Made by a program: the position numbers and the translations under genes
The notes under the pieces: model-generated
Told to the model about the DNA's origin: nothing
Seen by the model: only the letters and a program-made list of their open reading frames with translations
Databases searched by the model: none
Assembly: GCF_032050975.1 (NCBI RefSeq)
Contig: NZ_CP116967.1
Location: 3,903,001-3,967,000, forward strand
Direction of reading: 5' to 3'
Length of the DNA: 64,000 nt
Origin: Candidatus Nitrospira allomarina
Lineage (GTDB): Bacteria; Nitrospirota; Nitrospiria; Nitrospirales; UBA8639
Shown here: in pieces, positions 28,039 to 43,965 of the stretch
How positions within the stretch are numbered: the stretch's first letter is position 1
Layout of the letters: every line of letters begins with the position of its first letter

Positions 28039-28221
28039 CCTGACATTCTACCCTCTTCGAAGGCCGACAGGCAGCATTCATAATGTGGGGGTGGACACCT
28101 CTGGAGCTATTCAAATAACTCGCTCCTAAGGATTGTCCCGTGTAATTTTTTATGGTTCCTCCGAGTTTTCTGGATGCACCCATTACCCTCTGAACTTTTT
28201 GCTAGAGGGTGCTATCTCGTG

Positions 28222-28354
28222 ATTCCTCCCCTTTGTAAGGGGAGGCTAGGTGGGGTAGAGTCTCTGATATATCTACAAGCATTGATGTTTTCCGCCACCA
28301 CTTCCAGGAGAAGACGCTACCTCCCCTCCGCCCCTCCTTACAAAGGAGGGGAAA
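28222..28354. repeat. MITE-like element with about 42-bp imperfect inverted arms
   Basis: The left arm (28222-28263) and the right arm (28312-28354) are imperfect inverted copies containing CCCCTTTGTAAGGGGAGG-type cores and a GGGGTAGAGTCT / AGACGCTACC outer end. About 48 bases lie between them. Each arm is itself a small hairpin around TTTGTAA. Single arms of the same family occur at 32719-32760 and 43573-43618. No coding sequence is present; it is a candidate non-autonomous mobile element. The rest of the 28039-28530 gap shows nothing else. Confidence 0.7.
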
Positions 28355-29625: not shown

Positions 29626-29845
29626 GATGCCGGGTGTCGGCCCGGCAGCCGAGGTATTGCCTGATGCGTCTCGAGGAGCGCAACCTTTGTTGTGAAGGCA
29701 AAAGGACCCAAAACCATGGAGGCCCCGTCCGGCCTCATTGGATTGATCGGTCGCGAAGCAGGGAGACGGGCTAACTCGCGAGGCTCAAACAAGCCCGTCA
29801 AGAACAAGAGCGCCCGATCATGGGGCCGGACGGCAGGCGTCGGAC
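29626..29845 (+). repeat. Dispersed structured repeat, copy A (long variant)
   Basis: One of seven near-complete copies in this window. From left to right it has a stem CCGGG/CCCGG, GCCGAGG, the long variant of the second stem (TTGCCT...AGGCAA), a GGCCCCGTCC...CGG block, GACGGGC/GCCCGTC enclosing TAACTCGCGAGGCTC, and a terminal GGCCGGACGGCAGGCGTCGG. It lies between the maleate isomerase-like gene and the SDR-SPW-VKOR fusion gene. Confidence 0.9.
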
Positions 29846-29941: not shown

Positions 29942-32491
29942 TTGAAAGAGTTAATCAATTATTCTGACGGGGAATGTGGAACGGATAAGATGCATCCGGG
30001 CAAAGAAATTGTGTCCGGTGAGATGGGAGAAAAAGCTGACGAGGTAAAAACCCCGTCCAACACTCTCATCATCACGGGCAGCAGCGGTTTGATCGGCAGT
30101 TCCTTCATTGATCGCGTGGGGGAGAGCTACTGGGAAATGGCCTTTGATCGGGAAGGCCCGCCTCATCCTCCGCCTAGCACCGAGCACATCATCGACTGCG
30201 ACCTCAGTTCGGATACCAGCGTGAGCGCCGCGCTTGACAAAGTGCGTCGGCTTGGCTGCACACACATCGCCTCGGTCATTCATCTGGCCGCCTACTACAG
30301 TTTCTCCGGAAATCCCAGTCCGCTCTATGAACAGGTCACCGTACGGGGCACCGAGCGGCTGTTGCGTGGGTTGCGTGACTTCAAAATCGAACAGTTTATA
30401 TTTTCCAGCACGATGCTTGTGCATGCACCATGCGAACCCGGTCAATCCATCAATGAAGATTCCCCCCTCGGACCGAAATGGGATTACCCGAAGTCAAAGG
30501 TCAAGACGGAGCAACTCATTTTGCGGGAACGAGGTGACGTGCCAGTGGTTTTCCTGCGTATCGCCGGTGTGTATGACGACCGCTGCCATTCGATCCCTAT
30601 CTCACATCAAATCAAGCGAATCTATGAGAGAAAGATGGTCGCCCATGTGTTTCCCGGCGACATCACGCACGGACAATCCTTCGTGCATCTTGACGACCTC
30701 ATCGAGGCCCTGGTGCTCGTCGTCGAACGTCGCAAATCACTTCCGGCCGTTACCACGCTGCTCATCGGCGAGCCGGAAACCCTCAACTACGACGAACTCC
30801 AGCGGGCCATCAGCCGTCAGCTACACAACGAGGACTGGAAGACCTATCGCATTCCCAGGTCGGTCGCAAAGATCGGGGCCTGGCTTCAGGGCTTGTTACC
30901 CGGCCCAGGCCAGTTCATCAAGCCATGGATGATCGATTTGGCAGATGACCATTACGCGCTCGATGTCGGGCGCGCCCGCAAGCTTCTGGGGTGGGAGCCG
31001 CAAAATTCCCTACGCGAGACGTTACCCAAGATGACCGCTGCGCTCAAGGCGGACCCGGCCGGCTGGTATAAGGAAAATAAGCTGAAGGCGAACAATCCGT
31101 CACCGGATCGGCTGACGTGGCCGCATGTGGCAAACATGTTTCTCGGCCTTTGGCTGATTGGCTCTGCGCCCGCCCTCGGGCAGATAAAACCCGCGCTATT
31201 CTGGAGCGATCTGGCAAGTGGAGCGGGGGTGATTCTCTTCAGCTCGTTCGCAATTCGCCATGCGTGGGCAGCTTGGGCCGGGTGTGCGGTCGGACTTTGG
31301 GTGATGAGCGCCCCGCTGCTGTTTTGGGCGCCGAACGCCGCAGTTTACAATAACGACCTGATCACCGGCGCCCTCATAATAGCCTTTTCCGTCATCATTC
31401 CCCAGCTCGGGCTTTCTCCCCCCACCCTCAACTCAAGAACAGGGACAGGCCTGAGGGGAGGGATGAATGATCCGGCCACCTTGGCTCCCCATCTCCTGCC
31501 TTCTTCAGATGAGAGAGAAAAGGATTCCTGGAGGGAATGGTCCGGCTCCGGGATTCCCCCGGGCTGGAGTTATAATCCGTCCGGGTGGGAGCAACGATTG
31601 GGAATCGTGTTTCTGGCGATGCTCGGGTTTTTTCTCTCGCGTTATTTGGCGGCGTTTCAACTCGGGCATATCCCCCATCCGTGGGATCCCATTTTTGGTA
31701 ATGGCACAAGGCAAGTGCTCACCTCGGACATCTCAAAAATGTTTCCTGTGTCGGATGCGGGACTAGGTGCACTCTCGTACCTGTTGGACGCCCTCGCCGG
31801 ATTGATTGGTGGACGTCGGCGCTGGCGTACGATGCCGTGGATGGTGTTGCTGTTCGGACTGTTTATTATTCCGCCGGGCGTGACCAGCATTGTGCTCGTG
31901 ATTCTCCAGCCGGTCAGCATCGGCGCCTGGTGTACACTTTGTCTGGTGGCGGCGGTCGTGATGCTCCTGATGGTACCGCCGGCGTTAGATGAAGTGATTG
32001 CCACCAGTCAATTTCTTCTCCGCACGCGAAACGAAGGTGGAAGCGTGTGGCGGGCCTTGTGGCTCGGGGAAGGCCACGCGGAGGAAGAACCAGCGTCCAC
32101 ACAAGTACGCTCATCTCTCAAGGAAGTCATTCACGGCATTGAAGTGTTCTCCGCACCATGGAACCTCTTGCTGAGCGCGCTCGCGGGCATGTGGCTCATG
32201 GCAATGCCCTCGGTTCTCGGTCTGAACGGGATGGCGGCGGACAGTACGCACATCGTTGGCGCGCTGGTCGTGACCCTGGCCGTGGTAGCATTCGCCGAAC
32301 CGGCGCGCTTGGTGCGCTATTTTAACGTGCTTTGCGGCGTGTGGCTCATACTCGCGCCGTGGCTTGTAGCAGGCGGCACGTCAGCCTGGCTCTGGAGCAG
32401 TGTCGTCAGTGGACTTGCGCTTATGGCCTTGAGTTTACGCTGCGGCCCGGTTGAGGATCGATATGCCGGCTGGCAGCGATTTATCCGTTGA
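29942..32491 (+). CDS. Four-part fusion: SDR epimerase, SPW repeat, VKOR-like, SPW repeat
   Basis: An 849-residue fusion. Residues about 40-350 form an NAD-dependent epimerase/SDR with TLIITGSSGLIGSSF (dinucleotide loop) and WDYPKSKVKTEQ (Tyr-x3-Lys catalytic pair). Residues about 385-490 form an SPW-repeat membrane domain. About 545-680 is a VKOR-like domain with SDAGLGALSYLLDALAGLIG and the CxxC of GAWCTLCLVAAVVM. A second SPW-repeat block covers 735-835. The extra loop cysteine pair of canonical VKOR is not visible; only WCTLC remains. The listed start is TTG 29942; ATG at 29990 or 30023 is plausible and keeps the complete SDR domain. The gene lies between repeat copies A and B with unrelated neighbours. 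Confidence 0.85.
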   Translation: MKELINYSDGECGTDKMHPGKEIVSGEMGEKADEVKTPSNTLIITGSSGLIGSSFIDRVGESYWEMAFDREGPPHPPPSTEHIIDCDLSSDTSVSAALDKVRRLGCTHIASVIHLAAYYSFSGNPSPLYEQVTVRGTERLLRGLRDFKIEQFIFSSTMLVHAPCEPGQSINEDSPLGPKWDYPKSKVKTEQLILRERGDVPVVFLRIAGVYDDRCHSIPISHQIKRIYERKMVAHVFPGDITHGQSFVHLDDLIEALVLVVERRKSLPAVTTLLIGEPETLNYDELQRAISRQLHNEDWKTYRIPRSVAKIGAWLQGLLPGPGQFIKPWMIDLADDHYALDVGRARKLLGWEPQNSLRETLPKMTAALKADPAGWYKENKLKANNPSPDRLTWPHVANMFLGLWLIGSAPALGQIKPALFWSDLASGAGVILFSSFAIRHAWAAWAGCAVGLWVMSAPLLFWAPNAAVYNNDLITGALIIAFSVIIPQLGLSPPTLNSRTGTGLRGGMNDPATLAPHLLPSSDEREKDSWREWSGSGIPPGWSYNPSGWEQRLGIVFLAMLGFFLSRYLAAFQLGHIPHPWDPIFGNGTRQVLTSDISKMFPVSDAGLGALSYLLDALAGLIGGRRRWRTMPWMVLLFGLFIIPPGVTSIVLVILQPVSIGAWCTLCLVAAVVMLLMVPPALDEVIATSQFLLRTRNEGGSVWRALWLGEGHAEEEPASTQVRSSLKEVIHGIEVFSAPWNLLLSALAGMWLMAMPSVLGLNGMAADSTHIVGALVVTLAVVAFAEPARLVRYFNVLCGVWLILAPWLVAGGTSAWLWSSVVSGLALMALSLRCGPVEDRYAGWQRFIR

Positions 32492-32662: not shown

Positions 32663-32710
32663 AGATTAGATTGCTCGGACGCGAAGTAAGGGGAGCCGGG
32701 CTAACTCGCT
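32663..32710 (+). repeat. Dispersed structured repeat, partial copy
   Basis: About 48 bases matching the middle of the repeat (from CAGATTAGATTGCTCGGACG to GGGCTAACTCGC). Both ends of the unit are missing. It runs directly into a single arm of the MITE-like family at 32719, so the two repeat types have recombined or inserted side by side here. Confidence 0.7.
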
Positions 32711-32718
32711 GCGCTGCA

Positions 32719-32760
32719 GATTCCCCGCCTTTGTAAGGCGGGGTGAGAGGAGGTAGAGTT
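32719..32760. repeat. Single arm of the MITE-like inverted repeat family
   Basis: TTCCCCGCCTTTGTAAGGCG followed by GGGTGAGAGGAGGTAGAG is the same unit as the arms at 28222-28263 and 28312-28354. The central hairpin keeps base pairing although its bases differ (CCCCGCC/GGCGGGG versus CCCC/GGGG), which suggests the stem is what is conserved. Confidence 0.65.
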
Positions 32761-32863
32761 TTTCCCTCTTCACACAAGACACCGGCAAACAATGAGCTGG
32801 AATAGCAACCATGACCGATTTTTGGCCATAGCTGTCGTCTTAGTGTAAGTGTAATGTTTTGTG

Positions 32864-33054
32864 TTGCCGGGTTTCGGCCCGGCAGCCGAGCCACTTTGGT
32901 TTCGGTCAAAGTGGCCAAACCCAGTGACGCCCCGTCCGGCCTCATCAGATTGCTCGGACGCGAAGAAGGGGGAGACGGGCTAACTCGCGAGGCTCGAACA
33001 AGCCCGTCAGGAACAAGAGCATCCGATCAGGGGGCCGAACGGTAGGCATCGGTC
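32864..33054 (+). repeat. Dispersed structured repeat, copy B (short variant)
   Basis: Near-complete copy. First stem TGCCGGG/CCCGGCA, second stem CCACTTTG/CAAAGTGG, third CGTCCG/CGGACG around GCCTCATCAGATTGCT, fourth GACGGGC/GCCCGTC. It lies between the fusion gene and the first alcohol dehydrogenase gene. The remaining 140 bases up to the dehydrogenase hold only the decayed counterpart of the small ORF found at 37008-37094. Confidence 0.9.
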
Positions 33055-33197
33055 AGAAAACGGCGGAATCCTCGAAGCACCTCAGGCCCTGCAAGCAAAA
33101 AATTCGCTTTAGGCTTCACTCATTTATCCTAGATCGGAATATCCACTAATTTTTCTTGGGGCTGTTCCATAGTTTCTAACTTCTCTTCGATTATAAG

Positions 33198-34331
33198 CTA
33201 TGCTGATTTGCGATTTACAAATTCACCGCGTGTGGGTCGATCGAGCTCAGTTGCAGAATCCTTAATGTCTTTTATTTTATTATGCAGAGACTCCATATCA
33301 ATGACATGCCTAAAGTCTGCATCATTTCCATTTTCTAATGTTTTTATAACATCATTGATTTCGTCCATTCGAATCATTTTAATGCTTGGTTTAATGTCAT
33401 GCTTTGCACATAACTCCAGAACCTCTTGGGTCTCTTTTATACCGCCGATAAGTGACCCTGCCAGCTGTATGCGATTGAAAACCATAGGGCCCGGTGAAAA
33501 CTCCGGGAACTTGATCATATTACCAACAATAACAATTGTTGAATCCGTCTTCATAAGATCAATATACGGGGCAATATCGTGCGGCACTGGGATTGTGTTA
33601 ATGAGAAGATTAAGGCTTTGCGCAGCTTCTTTCATCTCGTCTTCATCTTTTGAGATGACAACTTTATCCGCACCCATCGTTAATATTTCGTCTCTTTTAT
33701 CTTCACTTCGGGTGAAAGCGACAACTTCAGCGCCAAGAGCTTTACCAAGTTTAATGGCCATATTGCCTAATCCACCAATCCCGGCCACGCCAAGGGTTTG
33801 GCCTGCTTCCAAATTCCAATGAATCATCGGAGAATAAACGGTAATTCCGGCACACATAATAGGGCCGACGTATTTGGGATCCAAATTATCAGGGATCGTA
33901 AGGCCAAATTCCTCGCGCACAACCATGCTGGTTGTATAGCCCCCGTAAGAATTTGTGCCATCCGGATCTTTGGGGCCGTTATAAGTGAGTGTGCAGCTTA
34001 TAGGGCCTTGGCAATAATTTTCCGCGTCTCTTTGGCAAGGGTCGCATTCTTGACAGCTATTGACCATACAGCCAACACCAATGAGATCGCCTTTTTCAAA
34101 TTTAGTGACGCCCGCACCAACGCCCGTCACCACTCCTAAAATTTCATGGCCTGGTACGCACGGATATAGTGTATTATCCCAATCGTTTTTCATCTGGTGC
34201 AAATCAGAATGACAAACACCGCAATATAAAACTTTAAATTCAACTTCGCCCTCTCGCGCATCATTTCGTTCGAATGTTACCGGGGCTAGCTCTACATCGG
34301 ACGATTTCGTGCCGTAGCCATACACTTTCAT
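33198..34331 (-). CDS. Zinc-dependent NAD(P) alcohol dehydrogenase, copy 1
   Basis: A 377-residue medium-chain dehydrogenase. Catalytic zinc ligands are in YCGVCHSD and in PGHEILG; the structural zinc site is the four-cysteine cluster SCQECDPCQRDAENYC. The cofactor motif is GIGGLGNMAIKLGKALGA, with the downstream strand AFTRSEDKRDE favouring NADP(H). It belongs to the CAD/YahK-type group, which reduces aldehydes. By hand count it differs from the copy at 37121-38254 at 29 positions, so about 92% identical. The coding DNA is visibly more A+T-rich than its surroundings. The C-terminal tail (about 25 residues) is longer than in E. coli YahK. Confidence 0.92.
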   Translation of the reverse strand: MKVYGYGTKSSDVELAPVTFERNDAREGEVEFKVLYCGVCHSDLHQMKNDWDNTLYPCVPGHEILGVVTGVGAGVTKFEKGDLIGVGCMVNSCQECDPCQRDAENYCQGPISCTLTYNGPKDPDGTNSYGGYTTSMVVREEFGLTIPDNLDPKYVGPIMCAGITVYSPMIHWNLEAGQTLGVAGIGGLGNMAIKLGKALGAEVVAFTRSEDKRDEILTMGADKVVISKDEDEMKEAAQSLNLLINTIPVPHDIAPYIDLMKTDSTIVIVGNMIKFPEFSPGPMVFNRIQLAGSLIGGIKETQEVLELCAKHDIKPSIKMIRMDEINDVIKTLENGNDADFRHVIDMESLHNKIKDIKDSATELDRPTRGEFVNRKSA

Positions 34332-34471
34332 AATAGTGCTCCTAATTATATGATTGGGTAAAAAGTGAAATTAATCCGACGTTGCGTCATAAAAACTTCA
34401 ATGCTAAAGGTACCTCATTTAACTTTATCACCTTGGACTAAGGTGCGTATGCTCCCACCGGGCTTTCTGGA

Positions 34472-34597
34472 TTAAACTTTTTTATCTTCTAAATCTGGAA
34501 AATATACATATTCTGCTTTACCAAATATTCTTCCATCAGTTGCAGATGCTTTAGTAGTTGTGTCGCCTACAGAAACCGAAGACGAACAAAACCGCAT
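34472..34597 (-). pseudogene. Small decayed ORF upstream of dehydrogenase copy 1
   Basis: A 41-codon frame with KAEYVYFPDLEDKKV at its end, then a stop. In the DNA beyond the stop the same frame reads GGSIRTLVQGDKVK before a second stop. This matches the longer open frame near dehydrogenase copy 2 (38467-38691), which contains GNVYFADLV and GSIHTLVEGDKVKW. The pair shows that a small gene of unknown function was once here and has been broken in both copies. Confidence 0.5.
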
Positions 34598-34825
34598 CAA
34601 CCACCAGAGTTAGTCAACGAGCAGAGTGAACTGTTCGGCGAACGCTTTTGCAATCACACAATCCGCTTTTGGCTTCACTCACCCATCCCAAAGCGTACCA
34701 TCCACTCTGATATTGCAAGACTTGACCGCAAGTGTTTACTTCAATTTCTTCCAAAAACAGAAGAGTGTTCAGATTATTGCTAAATACAGAACCCGCTTCT
34801 TATATAATTTTGAAGGTGTGAGTTA

Positions 34826-35013
34826 GATGCCGGGTGTCGGCCCGGCAGCCGAGTTACTTTGGATTCGGTCAAAGTGGCCAAACCCTGTGACGCCCCGTCC
34901 GGCCTCATTGGATTGATCGGACGCGAAGCAGGGAGACGGGCTAACTCGCGAGGCTCGAACAAGCCCGTCAGGAACAAGAGCGTCCGATCATGGGGCCGGA
35001 CGGCAGGCGTCGG
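34826..35013 (+). repeat. Dispersed structured repeat, copy C (short variant)
   Basis: Near-complete copy with GCCGGG/CCCGGC first stem, ACTTTG/CAAAGT second stem, CGTCCG/CGGACG third and GACGGGC/GCCCGTC fourth, then GGGGCCGGACGGCAGGCGTC. It is placed between dehydrogenase module 1 and the gamma-glutamylcyclotransferase-like gene. Confidence 0.9.
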
Positions 35014-35137
35014 CCAGAGGGGGGACTGGCTTAGGAAGGGGTGCCATAGCCACCGAAAATGCGGTGCAGTTGAATTGTTTCGAAATCACTGAGATCCTTT
35101 TCAAAGATCAACGTACTCGCTTAGGAATGTCCTGGGG

Positions 35138-35668
35138 TTACGAGCTGGAGTATTGTTGAATTCGCTCGATTAACCCTTGATGCTGGATCTGTCTTTCCTC
35201 GTCCGGATCTTCAACCGATTCGATCGATTCGATGGAACGAACGTAGGCATCAGGAAACCGTAAATGCCTGGCGCCCAGGACAATCAGTTCCTTATACCAA
35301 TGAAAGGGCTTCAGACTATTTTGAATGTAAGATGGCTGAGCCAGGTATGTAAGGCAGGAGCACTCTTTGCCATTGAATCTTACCGTGAGTTGGCTATCAT
35401 GATAACCATTCCCCTCGAAACGGTCGAGGATAGGTTTATGGGCTGAATCAATTTGATAGATGGCTCCATACACTCCATCCGATTCTTCTCCTGTGTGGGC
35501 CAGGTTGCACTTACTCGACCCATCCTGACCCCTTTTCTGAAAAGACAGTCGGTAGTGCTTCAACTCAACCACATCAAGCAATTCGGCAGACGGCACGCGT
35601 TCCCGCAACCGGACAGGGTGGAGGTTCGAACCATAAGCCAAATAATAAAGCAAATCCTCACTCATCAT
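35138..35668 (-). CDS. Gamma-glutamylcyclotransferase-like (AIG2/GGCT) protein
   Basis: A 176-residue protein of the AIG2/GGCT-like fold. The substrate loop YLAYGSNLHPVRLRERVPSA carries the YGSN motif. The expected catalytic glutamate is in ILDRFEGNGYHDSQL, in the typical D-x-x-E-G-x-x-Y setting. The family either converts gamma-glutamyl amino acids to 5-oxoproline or resolves gamma-glutamylamines; which applies cannot be told. A C-terminal helix rich in Glu and Gln is non-conserved. The gene shares a repeat-bounded module with the PNPOx-like gene, in the same orientation, 42 bases from it. Confidence 0.82.
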   Translation of the reverse strand: MMSEDLLYYLAYGSNLHPVRLRERVPSAELLDVVELKHYRLSFQKRGQDGSSKCNLAHTGEESDGVYGAIYQIDSAHKPILDRFEGNGYHDSQLTVRFNGKECSCLTYLAQPSYIQNSLKPFHWYKELIVLGARHLRFPDAYVRSIESIESVEDPDEERQIQHQGLIERIQQYSSS

Positions 35669-35710
35669 TCATTCATAATTAAGTAAAAGCAAGCGGTCTT
35701 CTAGTCCGCA

Positions 35711-36256
35711 CTACAATCCAAGAATCCCTGTCGGCTTCCCGTCGATACTGAGCTGGTTCTTTTTTTGCCAATACTCCGAGATCCCTTCCTCGCCCTTCTT
35801 CTCAGCCCACGTCGAAAGGACATGACGGTCTTCAACGTAGTTCATGAAAGGCACAGCATGACCGCAGGAGGTTTGCACCCGATCGATAGACACCAACACG
35901 TACTGCCGTGTTCCGGTTGTGGAAGGCAATTGACTCGAAAACTCCGCCCAACGAGCATCCCTCGGATGAAAAACTTGGGCCGCCCCATAAACGCGAAGGA
36001 TTCGTGGCGGCCCTTCAAAAGCACACCACATCATGGTTATTCGGTTGAATTCGGCCAGATGGGCTGCCGTTTCGTTTCCGCTGCCGGTCAAGTTCATCCA
36101 GAGAATCTCGCAAGAGTTGAGGACACGAAGTGAATCCTGGCCCTTCGGGGAGAGATTGATTCTTCCATCCGGCGCAGCCGTGGCCACAAAAAATACTTTT
36201 TGTTCCCCAATAAATTGGCTTAACTCATCACTCAGCTCTGGAAATTGAATAGCCAC
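35711..36256 (-). CDS. Pyridoxamine 5'-phosphate oxidase family protein
   Basis: A 181-residue split-barrel flavoprotein-like protein. ELSQFIGEQKVFFVATAAPDG, INLSPKGQDSLRVLN and EILWMNLTGSGNETAAHLAE are typical of the PNPOx-like FMN-binding group (the heme- and F420-related branch), not of PdxH itself. RITMMWCAFEGPPRILRVYG fits the second barrel half. Such proteins bind FMN, F420 or haem and are often stress-related; substrate is unknown. It forms a two-gene unit with the gene downstream at 35138, between repeat copies C and D. Confidence 0.85.
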   Translation of the reverse strand: MAIQFPELSDELSQFIGEQKVFFVATAAPDGRINLSPKGQDSLRVLNSCEILWMNLTGSGNETAAHLAEFNRITMMWCAFEGPPRILRVYGAAQVFHPRDARWAEFSSQLPSTTGTRQYVLVSIDRVQTSCGHAVPFMNYVEDRHVLSTWAEKKGEEGISEYWQKKNQLSIDGKPTGILGL

Positions 36257-36397
36257 AATTACGCTCCATTGATTTTAGTTACTCACGGCCCAGCCCATTT
36301 TCAGATCACCCCTAAAGAGGTCACAGGGGTTAAACGATTTCGGTACCGTAGCCTAACGATAATTGCACTGACTGTAAAATTTTGAAAGATATATTAG

Positions 36398-36618
36398 CTG
36401 CCGGGTCTCGGCCCGGCAGCCGAGGTTTTGCCTGAGGCGTCTCGAGGAGCGCAACCTTTGTTGTGGAGGCAAAAGGGGGCAAAACCATTGACGCCCCCGT
36501 CCGGCCTCATTTGATTGATCGGACGCGTAGAGGGGGAGACGGGCTAACTCGTGGGGCTCGAACAAGCCCGCCAAGAAGAAGAGCGCCCGATCATGGGGCC
36601 GAACGGCAGGCGTCGGGC
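36398..36618 (+). repeat. Dispersed structured repeat, copy D (long variant)
   Basis: Same overall unit as copy A, including the long second stem TTTTGCCT/AGGCAAAA enclosing GAGGCGTCTCGAGGAGCGC. The fourth stem reads GACGGGC/GCCCGCC. It is located between the PNPOx-like gene and the second dehydrogenase module. Confidence 0.9.
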
Positions 36619-36660
36619 AGGGGAAGGAAGGTAGGTAGGGAAAGGAAAAATCGGGTTCAC

Positions 36661-36870
36661 TCAACGATCAAAAAACATAACCATCTTTTGTGGCATGCAA
36701 GATTTATCCCCAAGAATGGCAAGACCTGACCTCGAGCACATCTGGTTCTCGGATGCGGTTGGAACAGCACTCTCAACATTGCTTAGCGTGTCTTTAGTGG
36801 GCTCACCCTCTGGCCTTTCGGCAAGAACAAAGTGCCGGTTTGTTGTATCGGACTGTGCGAATTGCTTCAA
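36661..36870 (-). pseudogene. 5' stump of a CurA/YncB-type NADP-dependent oxidoreductase gene
   Basis: The first 40 residues resemble the N-terminus of the zinc-less medium-chain reductases of the CurA (YncB) family: TNRHFVLAERPEGEPTKDTL then SAVPTASENQ. After this the frame diverges into unrelated sequence. A neighbouring frame continues with DVLEVRSCHSWG, which may be the shifted continuation. The remaining 300 residues are absent. It is a truncated, frameshifted remnant, lying within 50 bases of repeat copy D. Confidence 0.5.
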
Positions 36871-37007
36871 GCAGAGGTTTTCATGGTCTCAGTTTCTTTC
36901 AATTTCAATGTGTAGATATATGTCAAATTTCCACGCATAGCGCCCGGATACTTTAGAAATGTTTCATTTTATTAACTAACCGTGATTGATTTAATATTGA
37001 CATTCTT

Positions 37008-37094
37008 TCAATCCAAATCCGCCATGTTCACGACCATATTAGTGCCTACAGCTTTTCTATCGTCTTCCGTTAATTGTTCTTGGGGCTGTGCCAT
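37008..37094 (-). CDS. Very small ORF downstream of dehydrogenase copy 2
   Basis: A 28-codon frame starting MAQPQEQLTEDDRKAVGTNM, with AAGGA about 6 bases ahead of the ATG, 26 bases after the dehydrogenase stop. The first copy has the equivalent start (MEQPQEKLVDIPI) but stops after 13 codons. It may be a genuine microprotein or the truncated start of a lost downstream gene. No homology can be named. Confidence 0.35.
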   Translation of the reverse strand: MAQPQEQLTEDDRKAVGTNMVVNMADLD

Positions 37095-37120
37095 AGTTTT
37101 TCCTTCTCTTCGATTATAAG

Positions 37121-38254
37121 TTATGCTGATTTGCGATTTACAACGTTACCGCGTATGGGTTGATCGAGCTCGGTTGCAGAATCTTTTATGTCATGTATTT
37201 TACTATGCAGAGACTCCATATCAATGACATGCCTGAAGTCTACGTCATTTCCATTTTCTAATGTTTTCAGAACATTATTGATTTCGTCCATTTTGATCAT
37301 TTTAATGCTTGGTTTAATGTCATGCTTTGCACACAACTCCAGAACCTCTTGCGTCTCTTTTATACCTCCGATAAGTGACCCTGCCAGCTGTATGCGGTTG
37401 AAAACCATAGGGCCCGGTGAGAATTCCGGGAACTTGATCATATTACCAACAATAACAATCGTTGAATCCGTCTTCATAAGATCAATATACGGGGCAATAT
37501 CGTGCGGCACTGGAATTGTGTTAATGAGAAGATCAAGGCTTTGCGCAGCTTCTTTCATCTCATCTTCATCTTTTGAGATGACAACTTTATCCGCACCCAT
37601 TTCTAATATTTCGTCTCTTTTATCTTCGCTGCGGGTGAAAGCGACAACTTCAGCGCCAAGAGCTTTACCAAGTTTAATGGCCATATTGCCTAATCCACCA
37701 ATCCCGGCCACACCAAGGGTTTTGCCTTCTTCCAAATTCCAATGAATCATAGTAGAATAAACGGTAATACCGGCACACATAATAGGGCCGACATATTTGG
37801 GATCCAAATTTTCAGGAATCGTAAGGCCAAATTCCTCGCGCACAACCATGTTGGTTGTATAGCCACCGTAAGAATTTGTACCATCCGGATTTTTAGGTCC
37901 GTTATAAGTCAACGTGCAGCTTTTAGGGCCTTGGCAATAATTCTCCGCGTCTTTTTTGCAAGGATCGCATTCTTGACAGCTATTGACCATACAGCCAACA
38001 CCAATAAGATCGCCTTTTTCAAATTTAGTGACACCCTCACCAACGGCCGTCACTTCTCCTAATATTTCATGGCCTGGTACGCACGGGTATAGTGAATTAT
38101 TCCAATCGTTTTTGATCTGGTGCAAATCAGAATGACAAACACCGCAATATAAAACTTTAAATTCAACTTCGCCCTCTCGCGCATCTTTTCTTTCGAATGT
38201 TACCGGGGCTAGCTCTATATCGGACGATTTTGTGCCGTAGCCATAAACTTTCAT
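37121..38254 (-). CDS. Zinc-dependent NAD(P) alcohol dehydrogenase, copy 2
   Basis: The 377-residue paralogue of the gene at 33198, with the same zinc ligands (YCGVCHSD, PGHEILG, SCQECDPCKKDAENYC), the same cofactor loop GIGGLGNMAIKLG and the same long C-terminal tail ending NRKSA. The 29 differences are mostly conservative and spread along the chain, so both copies appear to be under purifying selection (inference). The similarity continues into both flanks, which marks a duplicated segment and not independent acquisition. Upstream lies a stump of an old-yellow-enzyme gene. The module is A+T-rich compared with the chromosome on either side. Confidence 0.92.
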   Translation of the reverse strand: MKVYGYGTKSSDIELAPVTFERKDAREGEVEFKVLYCGVCHSDLHQIKNDWNNSLYPCVPGHEILGEVTAVGEGVTKFEKGDLIGVGCMVNSCQECDPCKKDAENYCQGPKSCTLTYNGPKNPDGTNSYGGYTTNMVVREEFGLTIPENLDPKYVGPIMCAGITVYSTMIHWNLEEGKTLGVAGIGGLGNMAIKLGKALGAEVVAFTRSEDKRDEILEMGADKVVISKDEDEMKEAAQSLDLLINTIPVPHDIAPYIDLMKTDSTIVIVGNMIKFPEFSPGPMVFNRIQLAGSLIGGIKETQEVLELCAKHDIKPSIKMIKMDEINNVLKTLENGNDVDFRHVIDMESLHSKIHDIKDSATELDQPIRGNVVNRKSA

Positions 38255-38324
38255 AATAGGACTCCTTATATAATAGGGTTGGATTTAAAGTGAAATTAAT
38301 CTGACGTTGCGCTATAAAAACTCT

Positions 38325-38393
38325 ATTGGGTAGCTCCAGGTCACCTACTTTAATTGTACTCAATAATTTTCCCTCATTATTCTTCTTTAACAT
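38325..38393 (-). pseudogene. 5' stump of an old yellow enzyme (NADH:flavin oxidoreductase) gene
   Basis: The codons from ATG 38393 read MLKKNNEGKLLSTIKVGDLE then LPNRVFIA. This is the well-known N-terminus of NemA/OYE-type alkene reductases (LF.P.KLG...L.NRVVMAP). After about 23 codons the similarity stops, and the frame runs into sequence shared with the leader of the dehydrogenase. So only the first strand of the enzyme remains. Confidence 0.55.
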
Positions 38394-38466
38394 TTTGCAA
38401 TTCCTTTTTTTATTAATCCTCTCTCGCCACTCCATTATTATTATGTCTTCCAATCGATGCTATTCA

Positions 38467-38691
38467 TTAGTTAGAAGGTCGTTGAATTTTATGAAGGCTA
38501 AATATCATATTTGAAATTTCATCGGCGGTCTCGCTCACTCTAGAATTGATAAATAAAAGATGGTTATCAGAAATACGAAATTTGTCTCTCCATTTCACCT
38601 TATCACCTTCGACTAAAGTATGTATGCTCCCATCGGGATTTCTGTATTGAATTTTAATATTTACTAAATCTGCAAAATATACATTTCCTGC
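38467..38691 (-). pseudogene. Remnant small ORF upstream of dehydrogenase copy 2
   Basis: A 74-codon open frame without a start codon, reading GNVYFADLVNIKIQYRNPDG, then SIHTLVEGDKVKWRDKFRI and EISNMIFSLHKIQRPSN. A stop lies immediately upstream in frame. It is related to the broken frame at 34472-34597. The composition looks like real coding sequence, but no family is recognised. Confidence 0.45.
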
Positions 38692-38864
38692 TTATCGCAG
38701 CAGTTTTAGTGGTTTTGTCGCAAACAGGTACGTTCATGGAATCAGGTCTTGCCATCGCTCAAACCCCTTTCAGCTTCATTTACCTATCCCAAAGGGTGAC
38801 CATTTACTGTGTCATTACAAGGCCTGACCACAAGAACGGTAGAATTTTGAAGGATTGAATTAGA

Positions 38865-39053
38865 AGCCGGGGTTCGTCCCGGCAGCCGAGGTCCTTTTCT
38901 TTCGGGAAAAGGACCCAAAACCATTGACGCCCATCCGGCCACATCAGATTGGTCGGATGCAGGAGAGAGAGCGGGCCAACTCGCCAGGCTCAAACAAGGC
39001 CCGCCGGCTGACCAGAGCATCCGCCCATAGGGCCGAACGGCAGGCGTCGGACA
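38865..39053 (+). repeat. Dispersed structured repeat, copy E (divergent)
   Basis: The most divergent copy and the most informative one. First stem GCCGGG/CCCGGC, second stem GTCCTTTTC/GAAAAGGAC, third CATCCG/CGGATG, fourth GCGGGCC/GGCCCGC. Each stem differs in sequence from copies B and C yet stays paired. It lies between dehydrogenase module 2 and the lipoprotein gene at 39156. Confidence 0.88.
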
Positions 39054-40533: not shown

Positions 40534-40718
40534 TCGGACGCCTTCCGCCCATCCCCATGATCGGACGCTCTTCTTCTTGGCGGGCTTGTTCGAGCCCCGC
40601 GAGTTAGCCCGTCTCCTCTCCTTCGCGTCCGATCAATCTTGTGAGGGCGGGGCGTTAATGGTTTTGGCCACTTTTGCCGAAACAAAAGTGGCTCGGCTGC
40701 CGGGACGAACCCCGGCAT
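40534..40718 (-). repeat. Dispersed structured repeat, copy F (inverted, short variant)
   Basis: Same unit in the opposite orientation. Read on the minus strand: TGCCGGGGTTCGTCCCGGCA first stem, CCACTTTT/AAAAGTGG second stem, GACGGGC/GCCCGCC fourth. The switch to minus orientation starts here and continues in copies G, H and I. Confidence 0.9.
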
Positions 40719-40728
40719 CTATCGTTTT

Positions 40729-40811
40729 TTAGAAGTCGGCAGGAATTTTTTCTAAGACTTCTTGAAAGAGGCGCTCCACCCGCTCACTGGGCAGACAACT
40801 TCATAGGCCAT
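40729..40811 (-). pseudogene. Remnant downstream of the Phd/YefM-type antitoxin, possible toxin stump
   Basis: Directly after the antitoxin stop, an ATG starts MAYEVVCPVS, which soon ends. Another frame of the same stretch reads SERVERLFQEVLEKIPADF and then stops, 11 bases before repeat copy F. Two short coding-like pieces in different frames fit the stump of a frameshifted toxin gene. Which toxin family it was cannot be decided. Confidence 0.35.
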
Positions 40812-41093
40812 CTAGACGTCCATTTTTTTGAAGAGGCGCTCGGCGGGTACGGCTTGGCCCTGAGCATAGTCTTTCCGGGCTTGTTCGATTTCCCTAAGGA
40901 ACTTTTTGTCCTTTAACTCATCGAGCGTTTCGACAAGATCCAGCATATCTTCATAGGGCACGAGGAACGATACCGGTTTGCCATGCGAGAGCACCATGGA
41001 GGGAGACTTTGACTTGATCAACTTCGACAATTGAGCTTGTGCTTCTCGCACATTAACAGGCTTGGTTTTTCGCAAAAAATTATTTGCACTCAT
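40812..41093 (-). CDS. Phd/YefM-family antitoxin
   Basis: A 93-residue protein; ATG 41093 (MSANNFLRK) is the family-like start, while the longer frame to 41222 adds a non-family tail. TKPVNVREAQAQLSKLIKSK, then SMVLSHGKPVSFLVPYED, is the N-terminal DNA-binding part of Phd/YefM antitoxins. The C-terminal helix (KFLREIEQARKDYAQGQ) is the toxin-binding part. Normally a toxin gene follows, overlapping by a few bases. Here only a decayed stretch of about 80 bases remains before repeat copy F. It is therefore an orphan antitoxin. Confidence 0.8.
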   Translation of the reverse strand: MSANNFLRKTKPVNVREAQAQLSKLIKSKSPSMVLSHGKPVSFLVPYEDMLDLVETLDELKDKKFLREIEQARKDYAQGQAVPAERLFKKMDV

Positions 41094-41151
41094 GATAGCT
41101 TCTCCATATGTATTGCACTTGCATGTGTATAACAGAGGCCTTCCCCGATGA

Positions 41152-41403
41152 CGAGGTAAGAGGCCAAGAGAACACCAACCAAGACTTAAAGACCACGAAA
41201 AGTTCCCTCGATTCCACACCACTCTTTCTCTTAACCGCCGCGCGCGCTATCATGCGCTAGGGACAACCGACAACAAGCGTCAGCTTCACCTGACCTTTAC
41301 TGTACGATCGAGTACTGCCGGTATGTTAATTCGGATCATTTCAGCGCGTGACATGCACCGCAAAGAGAGGACCAAATATGAACAATCGAAAAAAAATTCC
41401 TGA
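41152..41403 (+). pseudogene. brnT: 5'-truncated brnT toxin gene
   Basis: The frame upstream of the CopG/BrnA-like gene reads RYHALGTTDNKRQLHLTFTV, then GMLIRIISARDMHRKERTKY. This is the C-terminal part of BrnT toxins (IR.ISAR.A...ER..YE). The stop at 41401-41403 overlaps the brnA start at 41378 by 26 bases, as in intact brnTA operons. The N-terminal half of BrnT (WD..K...N..KHGV) is absent; an in-frame stop precedes the fragment at 41149. So the toxin is dead while the antitoxin frame is intact. Confidence 0.7.
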
Positions 41404-41641
41404 GTTTAAAAGCGAAGCTGAAGAACGTGCGTTCTGGGAAAGTCATGACTCCAGTGAGTATATAGACTGGGATAAGGCTCAGACTGCCTCTTTCCCAAAT
41501 CTGAAGCTGTCAACAAAAACCATTTCGCTCCGGCTTCCCGAGGGACTGCTGGATCGTATAAAAATTGAGGCGAACAAGCGCGATGTGCCCTACCAATCCC
41601 TTATCAAAACCTGGCTGTCGGAAGATGTTAAACCTCGCTAA
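41378..41641 (+). CDS. brnA: BrnA-type / CopG ribbon-helix-helix antitoxin
   Basis: An 87-residue protein; ATG 41378 is preceded by GAGAGG at seven bases. The N-terminal part FKSEAEERAFWESHDSSEYI with W and acidic residues is typical of BrnA-like antitoxins. The C-terminus TISLRLPEGLLDRIKIEANK, then DVPYQSLIKTWLSE, is a ribbon-helix-helix DNA-binding domain. In the known system BrnA neutralises the RNase BrnT and represses the operon. Here BrnT is truncated, so the gene is an orphan antitoxin. It is divergent from the Phd-type antitoxin at 40812. Confidence 0.78.
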   Translation: MNNRKKIPEFKSEAEERAFWESHDSSEYIDWDKAQTASFPNLKLSTKTISLRLPEGLLDRIKIEANKRDVPYQSLIKTWLSEDVKPR

Positions 41642-41856
41642 CAACGGTCCGCTCGGTTTTTCGGTGGGGTGAGGTCTCCAGACCGAATCCGGCTCGTTTT
41701 CACCACCTACTACACCCTCTGCTGACTTCTGCACGCCCATTTGCCGAAAGAAAAGGACTTCGTCCGCCTGGACGAACCACGGCAACATGGAGCATCAAGC
41801 CGACTCCAACCCTCCAGGTAAACAGATGAGTTAACGATTGAGGTTTCCCCCCTTCT

Positions 41857-42203: not shown

Positions 42204-43395
42204 GATTCTATGGTTTAGGTCAAGCCTTTTGTGAGCCGGTCCGGGTTAAAAGTCGTCTGATAGCGATGAATGGACCACGCGGCTCGGGCGATTTTGCGCG
42301 CGATAATGACTAACGTCGCCGTGCCACTCCAGCCTTGGGTGCGATAGGCGTCGTAGATGGGTTTCCAGACTTTGGTTCAGACCGCGGCCATGGCAACATT
42401 AAAGAGCAACCGGCGTACCTCGGCCGGGCCGCGTTTGGATAAGCGGCGGCGCCCGCTTTTCTGCCCCGAGTCCTTGGCTCGCGGGTCGAAGCCGATGAAG
42501 GCGACGAAGGCATCGGCATTGCGGAACGGCACCCGCTCTAACGTATTGGTGAGGCTCAGCCCGACCAACGGGCCGACGCCCACGATAGTTTCGATCCGCG
42601 GTTGGGCGTCTCGATGCCCGGGCGCCCGGGCCGCCAGCGTGGCCATGGTGGCATCGAGCTTGGCCAGCAAGGCATCCAACTTTTGGAGCACGGCCTTGAC
42701 GTCAGAGGCAAACCCGCTGAGGTTGTTCATCGTGAGCTTGAGCATGCCCTTGATCCGGACGAGCTTGGCCCGCCGCCGAATTAACCGGTCGAGTTGGCGT
42801 TGGGTAGCCGTCGGCGGTGTGTAAGGCCGCAGGCACTGGTGTTCTTGGGCGACCAAGCGAGCCAACAACGTCGCATCGACTCGATCCGTTTTCGCCCGCG
42901 CGCCCATGGCTTTGGCATAAGGCCGGGTTTCCATCGGATTCAAGAGAAAGACGGTGTGACCGTGGGCATGCGCCAGATCCGCGAGGACCTCATGAGAGGT
43001 ATTGGTGGATTCGAGCCCAAGGCGACTGCCGGCGGGCAAAGACTTGAGCCACGTGCGTAAGGCGGTGCGCTGATTGCGGATCTCGTGAACTGGAAAGTGT
43101 TGCTCGGCACAAGCTACGACTACGGTGTCTTTGGCCACATCGCCTCCGACATTCAAAACGGGTTGCATACGCGTCGCCTCCACAAATAAGGTTCACCAAT
43201 GGGGTGGGCCACACCAACGTAAGCTTGCGTTCAAATCGGCGGTCAGGAGTCCTGCCGCAAGATTCTTCATCGACGTTGAGGATGTGGATGGGAGAAGTCT
43301 CAAACCGTCTGTCCAGAAACTGGCAGATGCGAAGCGATGTCCCTCCACCCCCGACCCCTCGGAGCTTCTCAAGAATGACAAGAAAAGACCATACA
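42204..43395 (-). mobile_element. IS110-family insertion sequence in a repeat hairpin loop
   Basis: About 1.2 kb between the two halves of one repeat copy (H and I). No terminal inverted repeats are evident, as usual for IS110. The transposase is on the minus strand, with about 210 bases of non-coding DNA on its 5' side (43184-43395) and about 11 on its 3' side. That layout fits the IS110 group, not IS1111, and the long 5' non-coding end is where bridge RNAs are encoded in characterised IS110 elements. Boundaries are inferred from the broken repeat and may be off by a few bases. Confidence 0.8.
42215..43183 (-). pseudogene. IS110-family transposase interrupted by an in-frame TGA
   Basis: The first 268 codons encode a DEDD RuvC-like domain (VGGDVAKDTVVVACAEQHF, GLESTNTSHEVL, then AKTDRVDATLLARLVAQE) and most of the Transposase_20 domain with the serine region IGFDPRAKDSGQKSGRRRLS. 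At 42377-42379 there is a TGA. The frame continues for 53 codons (TKVWKPIYDAYRTQGWSGTA, then TLVIIARKIARAAW) to a TAA at 42215. Those codons match the usual IS110 C-terminus, so the stop is a nonsense mutation. The ancestral length would be about 322 residues. The truncated protein may be inactive, or acts only with read-through. Confidence 0.85.
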
Positions 43396-43525: not shown

Positions 43526-43572
43526 ACCTTCCAAAAACTGCAAGGCTGACGAACGAAGAGAAAAATAATTAA

Positions 43573-43618
43573 AAGACTCTACCTCCCCTAACCCCGCCTT
43601 ACAAAAGCGGGGAATCTG
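43573..43618. repeat. Single arm of the MITE-like inverted repeat family (inverted)
   Basis: AGACTCTACCTCCCC, then CCCCGCCTTACAAAAGCGGGG, is the reverse complement of the arm at 32719-32760. The two single arms bracket the repeat-rich region from 32.7 to 43.6 kb and face each other. The rest of the gap up to 43965 contains no supported gene. Confidence 0.65.
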
Positions 43619-43965
43619 CAAAGAAAAAAATGCCCTCTTAAGACCGTAGCTATGACCAAGGATTTGAGTTTCCGGTTTATCTAGCTTGCCGACGATGCGG
43701 GGATATCCCCGCATCCACTCATTCGTCCCCGCAATCCCCGCAAACCGAGCCACGCCACATTACGCATAACCAACTGTTTTACAACAACTTTCCCAATTCA
43801 TCGTCATGGCAAGCCCCTTGCGATAGGACGGTTTCAACAATCGCATTCGCAATCGGAAAGGAGGTGAACATTCACAGGTGCTAAAGAGCGGCTTTTAAAA
43901 GAGTCCGCGAAACAGGACGACCGGAAATGCCAACGACAACTTAACGACTTCACAAGGAGACAGCC

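What the first reader, a model, noticed from the sequence alone, without database searches (positions are those of the whole stretch)
32864..39053. Compensatory base changes show that the repeat is a folded RNA or single-stranded DNA element
Stems differ in sequence between copies but remain paired. Stem 2 is CCACTTTG/CAAAGTGG in B, CCACTTTT/AAAAGTGG in F, CCCACTTTTG/CAAAAGTGGG in I, GTCCTTTTC/GAAAAGGAC in E. Stem 3 is CGTCCG/CGGACG in B and C but CATCCG/CGGATG in E. Stem 4 is GACGGGC/GCCCGTC in B but GCGGGCC/GGCCCGC in E. Covariation in several stems implies selection on structure. I know of no described element with this four-stem architecture, though my knowledge of repeat families is limited.
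Basis: seen in the sequence. Interest (0 to 1): 0.88.

Follow-up and report, generated by a model that had tools for sequence, protein, structure and literature searches.

The report
Folded repeats bordering shuffled gene cassettes
In marine nitrite-oxidising Nitrospirales a 190-base folded repeat, present in about a hundred copies per genome, sits at the borders of gene blocks that have been reordered, duplicated and moved between species, and flanks slots that hold a different anti-phage defence system in each species, which points to an undescribed structured element acting as an exchange joint for genes.

Summary
The repeat is ~190 nt: hairpin H1, hairpin H2, single-strand CAAAACCATT, then one long three-part hairpin (H3-H4-H5). 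Structure is under selection: 26 of 53 pairs change on both sides (0/500 shuffles), and 13 of the 20 strongest covarying column pairs in an independent alignment are predicted pairs. Eight copies lie in the window, ~95-100 in the genome. All 20 searched members of the genus carry it; no Rfam family matches.

Two further results. (1) DNA between copies behaves as cassettes: at three loci shared with other species these blocks are ~82-95% identical but permuted, duplicated or moved. Two loci are divergent arrays around a slot with a different defence system in each species. (2) H1, H2 and the long hairpin assort independently; H1 follows the DNA on its 5' side, the long hairpin that on its 3' side.

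No RAYT and no integron integrase was found in the host. Most likely: a mobile structured repeat whose copies serve as recombination joints. Site-specific (attC-like) or homologous joining is unresolved.

The parts
29628..29843 (+). element copy, H2 enlarged (216 nt)
   Evidence: cmsearch 144.3 bits; 5' boundary of cassette B
32665..32715 (+). fragment of an element, ends in the apical loop
   Evidence: repeat families D11 and I10; BLAST
   Evidence: 177.3 bits
34828..35013 (+). element copy, between cassettes C and D
   Evidence: 183.9 bits
36399..36616 (+). element copy with enlarged H2, between cassettes D and C'
   Evidence: 128.1 bits
   Evidence: 187.8 bits
40535..40717 (-). element copy, minus strand
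   Evidence: 168.0 bits
41857..42070 (-). element copy with enlarged H2, minus strand
   Evidence: 126.3 bits
43334..43524 (-). diverged element copy, minus strand
   Evidence: 95.6 bits
29844..32864 (+). cassette B (849-aa protein with epimerase, VKOR and SPW domains)
   Evidence: 90.9% identical block in another position in G011; Pfam
33053..34827 (-). cassette C (zinc alcohol dehydrogenase)
   Evidence: 91.2% identical block in G011, order swapped with B; second copy in own window
35014..36398 (-). cassette D (gamma-glutamylcyclotransferase-like and pyridoxamine-phosphate-oxidase-like genes)
   Evidence: 88.3% identical block in G011, different neighbours; Pfam
36617..38864 (-). cassette C' (second alcohol dehydrogenase copy)
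   Evidence: 92.6% to C over 1253 bp; 90.2% to the single G011 copy
40718..41856 (-). cassette with a Phd/YefM-like antitoxin gene
   Evidence: 497 bp at 94.6% between elements in G011; Pfam match below the curated cut-off
42377..43183 (-). IS110-family transposase gene between two copies; bystander as far as seen
   Evidence: Pfam DEDD_Tnp_IS110 and Transposase_20

Best explanation
The repeat is a non-autonomous mobile element of about 190 bases that works as a folded strand: two short hairpins (H1, H2), a conserved single strand and one long hairpin. An unidentified factor that recognises the fold spreads it into intergenic DNA, and this keeps the fold under selection. Same-direction copies then serve as joints at which gene blocks are excised, reordered, duplicated and exchanged between loci and species, above all around two slots that hold defence systems. 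Exchange happens in the linkers between the hairpins, so that H1 stays with the DNA on its 5' side and the long hairpin with the DNA on its 3' side. The likeliest agent of the exchange is ordinary homologous recombination between copies; products that join unmatched hairpin arms are lost. Shown: structure under selection, dispersal, clustering, shuffled blocks bounded by elements, modular linkage, variable defence cores. Inferred: mobility of the element as a unit, the agent of exchange, and that folding serves propagation.
For: Covariation. 95-100 copies, intergenic, clustered and same-stranded in clusters. Blocks between copies permuted, duplicated or moved between loci across species at 82-95% identity. 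Defence cores replaced between species inside conserved divergent arrays. A 99.4% block shared by two species that ends right after H1 of an element. H1 tracks the 5' neighbour and the long hairpin the 3' neighbour. Three unlinked modules with breaks at columns 22 and 52-58. Empty site for one copy in at least ten relatives. No RAYT and no integron integrase in the host. Long stretches of near identity between copies (H2, CAAAACCATT, loop) give homology for recombination.
Against: Copies are often only 70-80% identical, which is poor substrate for homologous recombination. The one empty site shows an insertion of about 430 bp, not a clean 190 bp, and no target duplication was seen. No transposase was identified that could spread the element. 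Some homologous blocks do not reach the element on one side. No expression or recombination data.
Confidence: 0.45

Rival explanations
1. The element is an attC-like recombination site. A recombinase (the host Xer proteins or an unrecognised enzyme) binds the folded single strand and joins cassettes at a fixed point between H1 and the long hairpin, as the integron integrase does at attC.
For: Cassette arrays with uniform site direction and order changes. Breaks concentrated between H1 and H3. The most recent junction lies exactly after H1. Conserved bulge and loop as expected of a protein-read hairpin.
Against: No IntI over the cut-off in the genus members searched; in the own genome only Xer-like proteins. 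No gene polarity relative to the element. A single narrow crossover window does not beat a uniform model. Another recent block ends at column 68. Selection against crossovers inside hairpins would give the same linkage map.
Confidence: 0.25
2. The element is a structured non-coding RNA gene or a regulatory RNA whose copies act on neighbouring or distant transcripts; gene shuffling is a side effect of having many copies.
For: Covariation and conserved unpaired motifs typical of RNA. The core module H1-H2-CAAAACCATT recurs in Acinetobacter in intergenic DNA. Isolated copies are kept at matching sites in several species.
Against: No consistent orientation to neighbouring genes. About 100 copies per genome with patchy occurrence in the family. 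No Rfam match. No transcript data were available.
Confidence: 0.15
3. REP/BIME-like selfish palindrome or architectural site: a dispersed hairpin spread by a RAYT-type transposase, or bound by nucleoid proteins, with no part in gene exchange.
For: Intergenic, dispersed, many copies, palindromic arms, patchy in the family.
Against: Much longer and more complex than REPs. No Y1 transposase in the own genome or in G023, G030 and G032, which also carry many copies. Block shuffling with borders at elements.
Confidence: 0.1

Closest known systems
Integron attC sites and cassette arrays (including integrase-less CALINs)
   Same: Folded sites in one direction between exchangeable gene blocks; blocks permuted, duplicated and gained or lost; bulge and loop conserved while stem sequence varies.
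   Different: 190 nt with three hairpin units instead of one 57-141 nt hairpin (sizes from general knowledge); no IntI in the host; no gene polarity; divergent paired arrays around a defence slot; many isolated copies elsewhere in the chromosome.
REP/BIME palindromes with RAYT (PMC2817692), and CGTC-tagged REPs without a transposase (PMC3733652)
   Same: Dispersed intergenic palindromes, often in clusters; CGTC REPs also lack a dedicated transposase.
   Different: REPs are 20-40 bp single palindromes; here about 190 nt with H1, H2 and a long hairpin; the CGTC at the 3' end is paired; no RAYT in the host.
MITEs and enterobacterial repeat units RU-1 to RU-3 (PMC2229807, PMC2759123)
   Same: 100-200 bp non-autonomous intergenic repeats with secondary structure.
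   Different: No terminal inverted repeats at the two ends; no target duplication seen; internal modules assort independently.
OMEGA/HEARO RNAs and IS110 bridge RNAs (general knowledge)
   Same: Structured elements of about 200 nt linked to mobile DNA.
   Different: No match to any Rfam family; no nuclease gene seen beside the copies examined; an IS110-family gene lies between two of the window copies only by position, and the other copies in the window have none beside them.

Membership tests
Integron (attC/IntI) | integron integrase in the genome | tested here: not met
   TIGR02249 over its cut-off in no genus member searched; the own genome shows Xer-like proteins only
Integron (attC/IntI) | gene blocks between folded sites, reordered between strains | tested here: met
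Integron (attC/IntI) | genes in a fixed direction relative to the site | tested here: not met
   no bias over 63 own and 170 other copies
Integron (attC/IntI) | crossover at one fixed base (R box) | tested here: inconclusive
   breaks concentrate between H1 and H3, one junction exactly after H1, but no narrow site is favoured by likelihood
REP/RAYT | Y1 (RAYT) transposase in the genome | tested here: not met
   PF01797: no match in the own genome, G023, G030 or G032
REP/RAYT | short single palindrome of 20-40 bp | tested here: not met
   190 nt with several hairpins
MITE | terminal inverted repeats | tested here: not met
   the 5' end pairs within H1, the 3' end pairs with column 62 onward
MITE | target site duplication at insertions | tested here: inconclusive
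   one empty site only, with about 430 bp of extra DNA
Rfam RNA families | covariance-model match | tested here: not met
Structured non-coding RNA | covariation across copies | tested here: met
Structured non-coding RNA | transcription as a discrete RNA | not testable with these tools
   no transcript data available

The most novel reading that the evidence does not exclude
An integron-like gene-exchange system without integron integrase: a three-unit folded single-stranded DNA site, recombined at the linker after H1 by a host or unknown recombinase, whose paired divergent arrays form plug-in slots for defence systems in a genus of nitrite oxidisers, with related sites in Gammaproteobacteria.
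Probability: 0.22. Interest if true: 0.9.

Novelty: new variant of a known kind. Interest (0 to 1): 0.68.

Why it matters
Defence genes cluster at hotspots, but how these are loaded and reshuffled in lineages without integrons is mostly unknown. Here one structured repeat marks the joints, and its own modular break-up records where exchanges took place. If the folded strand is the substrate, it would be a second, independent solution to what attC does. If homologous recombination does it, the repeats are a worked example of how structured repeats make a chromosome modular. The family has no Rfam entry, and its core hairpin recurs in Acinetobacter, so it may be widespread and overlooked.

Tried and rejected
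RAYT-driven REP family: rejected, no Y1 transposase in the host. Rfam family: none. Plasmid or phage carriage of the full element: no match to a full-length copy. Uniform gene polarity as in integrons: a first impression from two arrays, not upheld over all copies. A single sharp crossover by likelihood: a localised window does not beat a uniform model. A fixed 400-bp unit around the element at 799,760: its flanks are shared with almost no other copy. More recent transfers to pin the junction: only 15 blocks of 97% identity or more in the data held, most not ending at elements. Literature searches by motif and by topic found no description; subscription papers are not held.

Full report
WHAT WAS CHECKED. 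The repeat is there. A BLAST search of the whole 4.55 Mb genome with the copy at 34826-35016 gave 44 matches. A covariance model built from 34 full-length copies gave about 95-100, eight of them in the window between 29628 and 43524, on both strands. A copy starts at TGCCGGG and ends at GGCGTCGG; flanks are not conserved except in a subset.

STRUCTURE. Individual folds and the alignment give this layout: H1 GCCGGG/CCCGGC; linker CGAG; H2 GGTCCTTTTG/CAAAAGGACC; single strand CAAAACCATT; then one long hairpin made of H3 (GACGCC-CCGTCCGGCC with GGCCGGACGG-CA-GGCGTC), H4 (GGACGGACGC with GCGTCCGTCC) and H5 (GGCGGACC with GGTCCGCC), topped by the conserved loop AACTCGCnnnGCTCAAACAA. On 34 copies 26 of 53 pairs have changes on both sides, 156 such cells against 56 in shuffles, 0/500. 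On 210 distinct copies from several genomes, aligned without structure, the strongest covarying column pairs are the predicted ones: 7 of the top 10 and 13 of the top 20, out of 17,391 possible pairs. Stem 3 was paired locally (CGTCCG with the nearby CGGACG); that pairing has no covariation signal, while both arms covary with distant partners in H3 and H4. Selection on a fold is therefore well supported. The data do not say whether the folded molecule is RNA or single-stranded DNA.

DISTRIBUTION. A full-length relative occurs in a Nitrospinota contig (L168, 51 bits). The apical loop motif caps other long hairpins in Wenzhouxiangella and a Legionellaceae bin. The H2 hairpin plus CAAAACCAT recurs in Acinetobacter baumannii chromosome-sized records at 97% over 34 nt. 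There it has an H1-like hairpin before it and a long hairpin of unrelated sequence after it, in three places of one genome. None was found in E. coli genomes or in IMG/VR.

GENOME CONTEXT. Copies are intergenic (0 of 63 own and 1 of 170 other copies inside a called ORF), strongly clustered (59 of 94 gaps under 5 kb, 9 expected) and same-stranded within clusters (47 of 59). Two clusters are divergent arrays: eleven minus-strand copies, an 11 kb gap, seven plus-strand copies (3.43-3.46 Mb); and six minus, 5.4 kb, six plus (3.63-3.65 Mb). Relative G011 has the same arrangement at 1.40-1.45 and 1.61-1.63 Mb. The gaps hold defence genes. In the own genome one holds a Dsr1-like pair, a schlafen-group helicase and a SIR2-like protein, the other a 5-methylcytosine methyltransferase, an HNH endonuclease and Vsr. 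In G011 one holds type I methyltransferase and specificity genes with PtuA-like and McrB-like genes, the other a type I restriction-modification system; the G015 locus holds another type I system. Orthologous gaps share only about 0.8-1.4 kb.

CASSETTES. Comparing the window with the matching locus of G011, the blocks between copies are about 82-95% identical but in another order: own B-C-D-C' against C-B-(other)-D in G011. The alcohol dehydrogenase block occurs twice in the window and once in G011. Blocks of the own 3.43 Mb locus are found at the other array locus in G011, and blocks on its right side are permuted without inversion. One block is 99.4% identical over 864 bp between G011 and G018, although homologous blocks of these two genomes average 89%. 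Its identity runs through the whole H1 hairpin of the next element and stops right after it; its other end lies in an older element.

WHERE THE JOINTS ARE. Element pairs that share only the DNA on their 5' side are alike in H1 (0.77 at variable columns against 0.55 for unrelated pairs). Pairs that share only the 3' side are not alike in H1 (0.57) but are in the long hairpin (0.73 against 0.52) (same pattern). Independently, over 21,272 element pairs without shared flanks, identity is correlated within H1, within H2 and within the long hairpin, and near zero between them. Adjacent-window correlation drops to 0.01 at column 22 and 0.05 at columns 52-58, and is 0.22-0.53 elsewhere. So the element consists of three independently assorting units with breaks in the linkers. 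Two readings fit: a recombinase that acts in the linker region, or homologous recombination anywhere with loss of products that join unmatched hairpin arms. A likelihood comparison does not favour one narrow site over a uniform model, a second recent block ends at column 68, and H2 changes fast even between copies with both flanks shared, so this stays open.

MOBILITY. At the own site 799,760 the element is present in several relatives, partly deleted in G015, and absent in at least ten other genus members, where the flanking genes are about 30-100 bp apart. The extra DNA there is about 430 bp, not a clean 190 bp, and no target duplication was seen. No Y1 transposase occurs in the own genome. 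No integron integrase over the cut-off occurs in the genus members searched; only Xer-like recombinases were seen in the own genome.

INTERPRETATION. I commit to a non-autonomous mobile structured repeat whose copies act as joints for gene exchange, with homologous recombination as the likeliest agent (0.45), and an attC-like site-specific mechanism as the main rival (0.25). In outcome it works like an integron array; by the features tested (no integrase, no gene polarity) it is not a member of the integron family. In dispersal it works like a REP or MITE; by the features tested it is not a REP/RAYT element or a MITE with terminal inverted repeats. No description of it was found in the papers held.

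Noticed in passing
window 28221-28350, 32715-32763, 43572-43620: A second repeat family with the core CTTTGTAAGG flanked by GC-rich inverted arms and GGTAGAGT; at 32715 and 43572 it lies next to copies or fragments of the element.
   Followed up: no
own genome 3,443,773-3,454,576 and 3,636,109-3,641,499 (L208, L209, L210): Two defence-gene slots between divergent element arrays; contents differ between species.
   Followed up: partly
L309, L311, L312, L313: Acinetobacter baumannii chromosome-sized records deposited as plasmids carry an H1-H2-CAAAACCAT module followed by long hairpins of other sequence.
   Followed up: partly
L119, L137, L145, L148: Apical loop CAACTCGCTNCGCTCAGACA on long hairpins of unrelated stem sequence in Wenzhouxiangella and a Legionellaceae bin.
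   Followed up: no
L210:5040-5102, L208:2657-2719, L232:11726-11793, L234:11120-11204: Short copies of the H4-H5 part only (about 63-85 nt) lying near a full element.
   Followed up: no
window 29942-32491: 849-aa open frame that joins an epimerase-like, a VKOR and two SPW domains in one protein.
   Followed up: no
H2 of copies such as window 29628, 36399 and 41857, and L286, L289: Several copies carry an extra 25-30 nt arm inserted in H2, in unrelated loci and also in matching sites of relatives.
   Followed up: no
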